Source: Isoetes taiwanensis
Lineage: Eukaryota > Streptophyta > Lycopodiopsida > Isoetales > Isoetaceae
Reading direction: 5' to 3'
DNA length: 64,000 bases
Assembly: GCA_021234155.1 (NCBI GenBank)
Contig: JAJEKV010000002.1
Location: 17,732,041 to 17,796,040, forward strand
The position numbers and the translations under genes were made by a program. The notes under the pieces were generated by a model. The model was not told where the DNA came from, made no database searches, and was given only the letters and a program-made list of their open reading frames with translations. Positions 7,371 to 8,533 of the stretch are shown here, in pieces (positions within the stretch are counted from its first letter, which is position 1; the number at the start of each line of letters is the position of its first letter).

Positions 7371-8533
7371 ATGGCACGCACCAAATGTACAGCCAGAAAG
7401 TTCAGCCCCAGCCGCATCCCTTCCATGGCGGAGTAGCAGCAGGTGGTGGGAAGAAGATCTCGGAGCACCTCAGACCTGGGAGGCAGCAGGAGGAGCGTGA
7501 AGAATCGTCTAGTTCAACAGACGATGCCTTCCACGCTTCCCAGGAGCGGGAACAGAGCAGCTCCTCAGTGGAGATCCAAAGGATGGATGAAACCGTCAAT
7601 CTTAGCTGGCCGTCGAAGGAGGAGGAGGAGGAGGAGCCGCAGCAGGGGGGCGACCAAGAGCAGCAGGAGCAGCAGCAGCACCAGCAGGAGGAGGAGTAGC
7701 CAAGGGAGAAAGTCGGCACCTTCAGAAAGAAGAAAGGCAAGGAGAAAATAGAAGAGTGGCCGGAGGAGCGGGCACAAAGGAAGAAGAGGGAGAGGGAGAG
7801 GGAGGCACGGAGGAGAGAGGAGAGATCCAAGAGGGACCACGATCAGCCAAGGGGCATTGTCCACATAGAAAAACCTCGTCGGGAAGCAATTGACGATGAG
7901 GAGGAGGAGGAGTCCGAAAAAGTCGGGCAGGAGGAGGAAGAGCCGGAGCAGGACGCCGAGGAATCATCTAATCCCGACGCCCGCCCACCTTACCCTAAGT
8001 GGCCCAAGCCACCAAAGGCAATCAAGAAGCAGAAGGTGGGTGAGGGGGAATTCATGTTCAAGCAGGACCGTGAATTCCAGCGGCGCAAGAAGGCATACCA
8101 AGAGTACCTTTGTAGATGAAAGAGGTACAATGACTGGTACTGCAAGCAAAACATACAAAAGTACGTTAAGGGTGGGAGGCCCAAGAATCAGCCAAAGTCG
8201 CCACCACCACGGCCGGAGCCGCTCAAGAAAGTTTACCACGGGACGAATTCCAAGCATGCCGATGTGTTCCGGGAGATTAGACACTTTCAACAGTGTACTA
8301 ATCTCTTCATTCGGAAGGCGCCATTCGAATGGCTCCTCTGGGAAATCATGCAAGAGTTTCAGACCGATTATAGGGTCACACCCCTAATGGTCCGATCTCT
8401 GCAGGAGGCAGAAGAGGCGGAGCTCATCCAATTATTCGAGGAGGGCAACCTATGTGCAATCCACGCGAAGAGGGTGACTGTGATGCCCAAGGACCTCCAT
8501 CTGGCGAGGAGGATCCGCAAGGAGCGGCCCTAG
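7371..8533 (+). pseudogene. Long-tailed histone H3-like protein inside the Gypsy element
   Basis: The ATG at 7371 opens MARTKCTARKFSPSR, matching the canonical H3 tail start (MARTK-x-TARK, including K4, R8 and K9). The C-terminal part (8240-8533) is a full H3 histone fold: an alpha-N helix with FREIRHFQQCTNLFIRK, alpha-1 PFEWLLWEI, loop 1 QTDYRVT, alpha-2 with LQEAEEAELIQLFEEGN, then LCAIHAKRVTVMPKDLHL and ARRIRKERP before the stop. Loop 1 has no insertion, so it resembles canonical H3 more than CENH3. About 290 residues of Glu/Gln/Ser-rich, then Lys/Arg-rich low-complexity sequence separate tail and core, a region absent from normal H3. Breaks: the tail frame meets a TAG at 7434, the frame carrying the core has TAG at 7697 and TGA at 8117, and a frame change is needed near 7430-7500. 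The role is unknown; chromatin targeting or packaging is a guess. Confidence 0.85.

What the first reader, a model, noticed from the sequence alone, without database searches (positions are those of the whole stretch)
7371..8533. Histone H3-like protein gene between primer-binding site and gag of a Gypsy retrotransposon
Seen: an ATG followed by the H3 tail motif MARTK-x-TARK, and a C-terminal complete H3 fold with NLCAIHAKRVTVMPKD and ARRIRKER. A ~290-residue charged low-complexity insert separates them. It lies 520 bp after a tRNA-Met primer-binding site and 2.8 kb before gag. Known: some chromoviruses use an integrase chromodomain to read histone marks; I know of no Gypsy element that carries an H3 histone. 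Inference: the element captured a host H3 and could use it for nucleosome entry, chromatin targeting or DNA packaging. The copy itself is broken by two in-frame stops and a frame change.
Basis: partly seen in the sequence, partly recalled or inferred. Interest (0 to 1): 0.92.

Follow-up and report, generated by a model that had tools for sequence, protein, structure and literature searches.

The report
Jumping genes carrying a histone gene
In this plant genome, apparently a quillwort, a large family of retrotransposons carries a captured histone H3 gene beside the genes for copying itself, and selection has kept the histone working, so these jumping genes may supply a chromatin protein of their own.

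Summary
The window copy is a dead 5' half of a Ty3/Gypsy chromovirus: interrupted LTR, tRNA-iMet PBS (6851), H3-like gene (7371-8533, two in-frame stops plus a frame change), an unknown ORF, gag, protease, RT and RNase H, cut at about 14573. Elsewhere in the same genome (1.66 Gb; size points to Isoetes taiwanensis) the gene is mobile and multi-copy. All 150 scored core hits match, 34 in stop-free frames of 360 aa or more. Six of 10 copies examined are whole LTR-PBS-H3-ORF2-gag-pol-LTR units (integrase and chromodomain in the two scanned), three with exact 5-bp target duplications. H3 is in place in 15 of 20 copies picked by RT, but only 4 of 8 picked by LTR/PBS junction; one relative lacks it. 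The core is under strong purifying selection (median dN/dS about 0.06; 0.07 in RT-picked copies) and groups with canonical H3, not plant CENH3. A second lineage carries an H3 domain closer to host H3, with another N-terminus. A TATA-like box precedes the ATG in 29 of 32 copies. Best model: an element-encoded H3 variant docking with host H4 in nucleosomes (inferred). Precedents: fungal hAT transposons with H3; an orchid Gypsy with an m6A demethylase.

The parts
3532..3858 (+). inner piece of the 5' LTR, separated from the LTR end by about 2.8 kb of other DNA
   Evidence: blastn 77.6-82% to the LTRs of six other copies, in which the two pieces adjoin
6637..6849 (+). 3' end of the 5' LTR
   Evidence: blastn 77-85% to LTR ends of six other copies, the hits running on to 6876; sequence ends GCATCACA just before the PBS
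6851..6863 (+). primer-binding site, tRNA-iMet type (primer identity recalled)
   Evidence: TGGTATCAGAGCC, only such site in the window; 2053 exact LTR-end/PBS junctions in the genome, 0 in the reversed-pattern control
7273..7280 (+). TATA-like box TTTAAATA, 98 bp before the H3 ATG; putative internal promoter
   Evidence: present in 29 of 32 copies; its 15-column block is 0.98 conserved against 0.69 mean in 16 copies
7371..7400 (+). H3 N-terminal tail MARTKCTARK
   Evidence: a tail found in 32 of 38 copies, K4 in 32 of 32
7401..8266 (+). charged low-complexity insert; in this copy broken by a frame change and stops at 7697 and 8117
   Evidence: open in nine other copies, dN/dS 0.153
8267..8530 (+). 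H3 histone core (88 residues), stop at 8531-8533
   Evidence: dN/dS 0.05-0.07 among copies
8745..9242 (+). three copies, about 198 bp apart, of a roughly 90-bp palindromic unit
9414..9420 (+). TATA-like box before ORF2 (TATAAAA)
   Evidence: not tested in other copies
9532..10994 (+). ORF2, broken here, unknown protein conserved in other copies
   Evidence: no convincing Pfam, NCBIfam or PDB relative
11288..12500 (+). gag region with a CCHC-like stretch (broken; end approximate)
   Evidence: Retrotrans_gag 0.0036, weak; strong in copy L040 (8.9e-16)
12635..13267 (+). aspartic protease
   Evidence: RVP_2 6.5e-05
13274..13753 (+). reverse transcriptase
   Evidence: RVT_1 1.1e-26
13870..14304 (+). 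RNase H; element sequence ends at about 14573 against a LINE-like element
   Evidence: RT_RNaseH_2 3e-28; junction

Best explanation
A chromovirus lineage captured a canonical (not centromeric) H3 gene and has kept it as an element gene between the PBS and gag. Shown: multi-copy mobility inside complete LTR units, purifying selection on the histone core, a conserved TATA-like box at a nearly fixed distance. Inferred: the protein is made from its own transcript, pairs with host H4 through the retained tetramer surface, and enters nucleosomes. There the element-specific N-terminal extension (H3 tail plus charged stretch in lineage F1, another N-terminus in F2) is shown outward, to tether the integration complex or to keep chromatin around element copies permissive. 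The docking function rests on the core, because the core is what both lineages keep.
For: Six of 10 fetched copies have an LTR pair (92.3-97.9% identical) with H3, ORF2, gag, PR, RT and RNase H matches between. Integrase, SH3_Tf2-1 and chromodomain lie between the LTRs of the two scanned. Exact 5-bp target duplications in 3 of 6, read by eye. H3 present in 15 of 20 RT-picked copies. Median dN/dS 0.047-0.075 per dS band, 0.073 in RT-picked cores, 0.049 core against about 0.15 tail and insert. The F2 core shows dN 0-0.022 at dS 0.11-0.66 (10 pairs of 5 copies). Residues that I recall as H3-H3' and H3-H4 contacts (L60, I62, F67, L70, F78, L92, L100, L103, F104, C110, H113, A114, R116, D123, L126, R129, I130) are kept at 0.94-1.0. 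The element cores are one clade on the canonical H3 side of the tree.
Against: No expression, protein or nucleosome data. AlphaFold models made without an alignment failed (pLDDT 37.5 and 33.3). At 31 of 88 core positions the commonest residue differs from plant H3, among them the 84-90 loop that H3 chaperones read (role recalled), and tail residue 10 is S in 0 of 32. F2 lacks the ARTKQTARK tail. One relative has gag in the place of H3, so H3 is not needed by every relative, and only 4 of 8 junction-picked copies held H3, two of them degraded. In 2 of the 10 copies chosen for long frames the tail is out of frame with the core. An H4 control search did not complete.
Confidence: 0.65

Rival explanations
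1. Anti-silencing decoy: the H3-like protein weakens H3K9 methylation at element copies, because tail residues near K9 are altered and the extension interferes with readers and writers.
For: K4 and K9 are kept in 32 and 29 of 32 tails, but position 7 is Y in 17 and position 10 is S in none of 32; LTR pairs with 1.4-3.6% mismatches show recent activity.
Against: The five F2 copies lack the tail altogether, yet their core is very well conserved.
Confidence: 0.25
2. Particle component: the basic histone fold packages or condenses element cDNA or RNA inside virus-like particles and never enters host nucleosomes.
For: The gene sits in the genomic RNA region beside gag; histone folds bind DNA (established knowledge).
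Against: Residues recalled as H3-H3' and H3-H4 contacts are among the best kept ones, which a mere DNA binder would not need; no fusion to gag seen.
Confidence: 0.12
3. Passenger gene: captured by chance and carried along without a role for the element.
For: Fungal hAT elements carry H3 copies that may have drifted (PMC3538342, passages) or were inactivated (PMC6710886, abstract). L085 lacks H3.
Against: dN/dS about 0.05-0.07, also in RT-picked copies, is not drift; the largest dS values are near saturation and only roughly known.
Confidence: 0.03
4. Host H3 pseudogene with unrelated element pieces inserted around it.
For: In the window alone the copy is broken and the neutral-decay test was weak (P of no stop 0.15-0.17, joint 0.02-0.03).
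Against: Same order and spacing in many unlinked copies; target duplications outside the LTRs.
Confidence: 0.005

Closest known systems
Chromoviruses (Ty3/Gypsy with integrase chromodomain, group II type)
   Same: LTR, PBS, gag-PR-RT-RH-IN-chromodomain order; the chromodomain keeps W45 and lacks Y24 and Y48 by my alignment by eye, as group II does (PMC3350952, passages)
   Different: carries an H3-like gene and a second unknown ORF between PBS and gag
hAT DNA transposons with captured histone H3 in Pyrenophora tritici-repentis and Pseudocercospora (PMC3538342 passages; PMC6710886 abstract)
   Same: a transposable element amplifies an H3-like gene; in Pyrenophora it fits neither H3 nor CenH3, has insertions in the tail, and an extra unknown ORF is present
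   Different: DNA transposon with TIRs in fungi; H3L may have drifted or copies are RIP-inactivated; here an LTR retroelement in a plant with strong purifying selection and a long N-terminal extension
Orchid Ty3/Gypsy elements with an AlkB m6A demethylase ORF (PMC9289625, abstract, one section and passages)
   Same: Gypsy element that fixed a host-like gene as an extra ORF, with activity shown in vitro
   Different: RNA demethylase, not a histone; the screen of 121 angiosperm genomes found 15 extra domains, and none of the nine that the section names is a histone
Virus-encoded single histones, e.g. bracovirus H4 and singlet viral H3 (PMC9145170, passages)
   Same: mobile genome encodes one core histone thought to enter host nucleosomes, with an extended tail in bracovirus H4
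   Different: DNA viruses, not a retrotransposon

Membership tests
Chromovirus (Ty3/Gypsy) | two LTRs (TG...CA) with 5-bp target duplication | tested here: met
   6 of 10 fetched copies have the LTR pair; TSD exact in 3 of 6. The window copy itself lacks a 3' LTR within the window
Chromovirus (Ty3/Gypsy) | tRNA-iMet PBS and polypurine tract | tested here: met
   PBS; purine tract such as AAGGGGGGGAGAA before the 3' LTR
Chromovirus (Ty3/Gypsy) | order gag-PR-RT-RH-IN with chromodomain at the end of IN | tested here: met
   whole order in L040; in L050 no gag model and weak protease, the rest as in L040; the window copy is truncated before IN
CENH3 (centromeric H3) | groups with CENH3 and has the lengthened loop 1 | tested here: not met
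   plant CENH3 forms a separate clade (100/96 and 100/98; comparison sequences recalled); human CENP-A, a long branch, fell on the H3 and element side. The 88-residue core aligns ungapped to H3.1, while CENH3 alignments carry gaps in loop 1
Canonical histone H3 | 136 residues, tail directly joined to core, nearly invariant sequence | tested here: not met
   364-389 aa from the M of MARTK in 9 copies and 61% core identity for the window copy (54 of 88); the 15 canonical host genes are 96-98%
hAT H3L transposon | TIRs and hAT transposase | tested here: not met
   LTRs and gag-pol instead; no transposase model in the scans
Nucleosome-forming H3 variant | assembles with H4 into tetramers and nucleosomes | not testable with these tools
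   only residue conservation seen

The most novel reading that the evidence does not exclude
A retrotransposon brings its own replacement histone: the H3-like protein enters nucleosomes at chosen chromatin and its extension or tail is the long-sought partner of the element's group II integrase chromodomain, so the element writes its own landing sites and shapes the host's chromatin on a genome-wide scale.
Probability: 0.2. Interest if true: 0.97.

Novelty: new variant of a known kind. Interest (0 to 1): 0.9.

Why it matters
My searches listed no retroelement described with a histone gene (open-licence PubMed Central papers only, top hits seen), though mobile H3 genes are known from fungal hAT elements. 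If the protein enters nucleosomes, a very large number of mobile gene copies could feed an extra H3 variant into the chromatin of a vascular plant, and the arms race between silencing and transposons would include histones made by the transposon. It also offers a candidate partner for group II chromodomains, whose interacting factor was not found (PMC3350952, passages; PMC12786077, passages), and two natural lineages with different N-terminal extensions on the same fold for direct comparison.

Tried and rejected
Rejected: CENH3 origin; host pseudogene; chance motif. The single-copy neutral-decay simulation was inconclusive: P of no stop 0.15-0.17, joint with conservative replacements 0.02-0.03. 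Viral-contig and prokaryote-contig scans found no relative. AlphaFold without an alignment failed. ORF2 has no convincing match in Pfam, NCBIfam or PDB. The idea that tail plus own chromodomain suffices is weakened: F2 has no such tail and the chromodomain lacks two cage residues. An RT benchmark for dN/dS was uninformative (dS saturated in 3 of 3 pairs). An H4 control search, meant to show whether H3 alone is amplified, was sent 16 times and never answered.

Full report
WHAT IS IN THE WINDOW. The H3 tail MARTKCTARK starts at 7371 and the H3 core ends at 8530 with a stop at 8531-8533, in another frame. The core matches Pfam Histone at 7.7e-23 and histone H3 chains of the PDB at 2.4e-29, and is identical to plant H3.1 at 54 of 88 ungapped positions. 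Stops at 7697 and 8117 and the frame change break this copy. Around it: LTR pieces 3532-3858 and 6637-6849, PBS at 6851, ORF2 (9532-10994), gag, protease, RT and RNase H. The element ends at about 14573 against a LINE-like element on the other strand; RVT_1 is found in 2 of 5 minus-strand ORFs there, and calling it a LINE is my reading. Pfam finds no integrase in + frames from 14.4 to 24.4 kb and there is no second copy of any element part in the window.

WHOSE GENOME. G000 has 1,658,258,908 bases in 1110 contigs. The Isoetes taiwanensis paper gives 1658.30 Mb in 204 scaffolds plus 909 contigs (PMC8566536, passages). That the host is this quillwort is an inference from size. The word histone does not occur in the main text of that paper or of the I. 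sinensis genome paper (PMC10541799, passages).

MANY COPIES. A search with the window core had 8716 first-look candidates; 150 were scored and all 150 match (E at most 4.1e-49). By my count of the table, 34 of 150 lie in open frames of at least 360 aa without stops. The LTR-end/PBS junction occurs exactly 2053 times (1038 + 1015), with 0 in the reversed-pattern control. Of the 30 loci cut out, which were picked by H3 score, 24 show a tail and 23 a PBS-like site. Twenty have both by the script, one of them (L024) at a senseless distance, leaving 19 with PBS-to-ATG 505-586 bp. Over 38 copies a tail is found in 32 (six or more of ten residues): K4 in 32 of 32, K9 in 29 of 32, position 7 Y in 17 and A in 11, position 10 S in none.

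IT IS PART OF THE ELEMENT. I fetched ten + strand copies chosen for long H3 frames, a biased choice. All ten have the PBS (0-1 mismatch); six show an LTR pair (92.3-97.9% identity) with gag, PR, RT, RNase H and ORF2 matches between, some of them broken. The other four lack a pair within the 10 kb fetched; one of them (L031/L032) has only distant pol matches. In eight of the ten the tail is in frame with the core; in L035 and L037 it is present but out of frame. LTRs are about 1.65 kb, TGTGACGG...GCGTCACA, with a purine tract before the 3' LTR. Exact 5-bp target duplications, read by eye: L073 TGGTG, L074 AGAGA, L076 CTTAG; L072 has one mismatch; L071 and L075 could not be read. LTR pairs differ at 23-59 aligned sites. 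At a recalled rate of 7e-9 per site and year that is about 1-2.6 million years, but the rate in this host is unknown. Pfam finds capsid/gag, protease, RT, RNase H, H2C2, rve, SH3_Tf2-1 and Chromo in L040, and RT, RNase H, H2C2, rve, SH3_Tf2-1 and Chromo with weak protease and no gag model in L050.

INDEPENDENT CHECKS. RT search: 25976 first-look candidates, 150 scored. I took every seventh row from the second (20 of 150) and read a blind 700-bp window about 4.9 kb upstream: the H3 core is there in 15 of 20 (L063 among them is a weak, broken match). By my arithmetic at least eleven RT rows besides the window's own, two of them in the sample of 20, pair with an H3 row at 4.88-4.96 kb in the two tables. 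The first eight junctions listed were read at +1.2 to +2.3 kb: H3 in 4 of 8, two of them degraded. Of the other four, L085 holds gag (84% to L083) where H3 should be and three match nothing fetched. So the gene is common but not universal.

SELECTION. Thirty-five of 39 H3 cores are stop-free. Over the 470 of 595 pairs with dS below 2, median dN/dS is 0.047-0.075 per dS band, and the mean minor-base fraction at codon positions 1, 2, 3 is 0.077, 0.040, 0.284. Those copies were mostly chosen by protein score, which favours low dN. An RT-picked set (the 9 of 15 that align without gaps, two with one stop each) gives a median of 0.073 over 30 of 36 pairs, range 0.036-0.31, 6 being saturated. In nine full ORFs: tail 0.154 (30 pairs), insert 0.153 (35), core 0.049 (36). 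At 57 of 88 core positions the commonest residue equals plant H3; these include the positions that I recall as H3-H3' and H3-H4 contacts. Large dS values are near saturation and rough.

ORIGIN. With four H3 and four CENH3/CENP-A sequences, 17 element cores form one clade (100/100) and the three plant CENH3 another (100/96); human CENP-A, a long branch, fell on the H3 and element side (comparison sequences recalled except H3.1). A search with plant H3.1 gave 15 canonical host genes (96-98%) plus 135 places at 71-86%, of 150 scored. Five of those 135 places were fetched: an exact PBS lies about 750 bp before an ATG, the N-terminus is MA(I/N)TK..., the H3 domain is near canonical, and there is no ARTKQTARK tail. 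One of two downstream stretches has gag, PR, RT (78.6% to the window RT) and RNase H; the other has none within 8 kb but a B3 domain just over its cut-off. F1 and F2 as one clade are not rejected (p-AU 0.294), so one capture or two remain possible.

HOW IT MAY WORK. TTTAAATA lies upstream of the ATG in 29 of 32 copies, at 92-100 bp in 28 and 80 bp in one. In 16 aligned copies its 15-column block is 0.98 conserved against a mean of 0.69 and 0.89 at the ATG; a second block at about -133 reaches 0.96, so the box is not the only peak. This fits an internal promoter. F1 and F2 share the histone fold and differ in the extension, so the common function is probably docking through H4; the extension would be the cargo. 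The chromodomain keeps W45 and lacks Y24 and Y48 by eye, the group II pattern whose partner was not found (PMC3350952). An element-made H3 is a candidate partner; this is speculation.

PRIOR ART. Eight literature searches for such an element (one more was for the host) turned up fungal hAT elements with H3, the orchid AlkB Gypsy with its screen of 121 angiosperm genomes and viral histones (PMC9145170, passages). A review of additional ORFs, found through a reference list, has no mention of histone in the main text (PMC7264820, passages). No retroelement with a histone was seen in the listings or passages; papers outside the held library are unseen.

Noticed in passing
L077-L081 (G000 C974, C1018, C1044, C1034, C1061): Second LTR-element lineage (F2) with a near-canonical H3 domain behind a different N-terminus; 135 of 150 scored rows fall outside the canonical genes, though only five were fetched.
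   Followed up: partly
L085: Relative with the same LTR-end/PBS junction in which gag occupies the place of H3 and ORF2: an H3-less variant, a deletion or the pre-capture form.
   Followed up: partly
L082 (G000 C1044:6217693-6225692): F2-type H3 gene followed by no gag-pol within 8 kb but by a B3 DNA-binding domain just over its cut-off; possibly a non-autonomous derivative or a nested insertion.
   Followed up: no
window 9532-10994; L040:575-2137: ORF2, up to 521 aa open, conserved between copies and without a convincing known relative.
   Followed up: partly
window 8745-9242: Three palindromic units about 198 bp apart between the H3 gene and ORF2 that fold into hairpins (-23 to -34 kcal/mol).
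   Followed up: no
window 15781-15927, 18981-19133, 20281-20389, 21315-21410: Long (GA)n/(CT)n tracts repeatedly next to minus-strand ORFs of LINE-like elements (RVT_1 in 2 of 5 such ORFs).
   Followed up: partly
window 56532-57755: GC-rich tandem array with many register-shifted self-matches.
   Followed up: no
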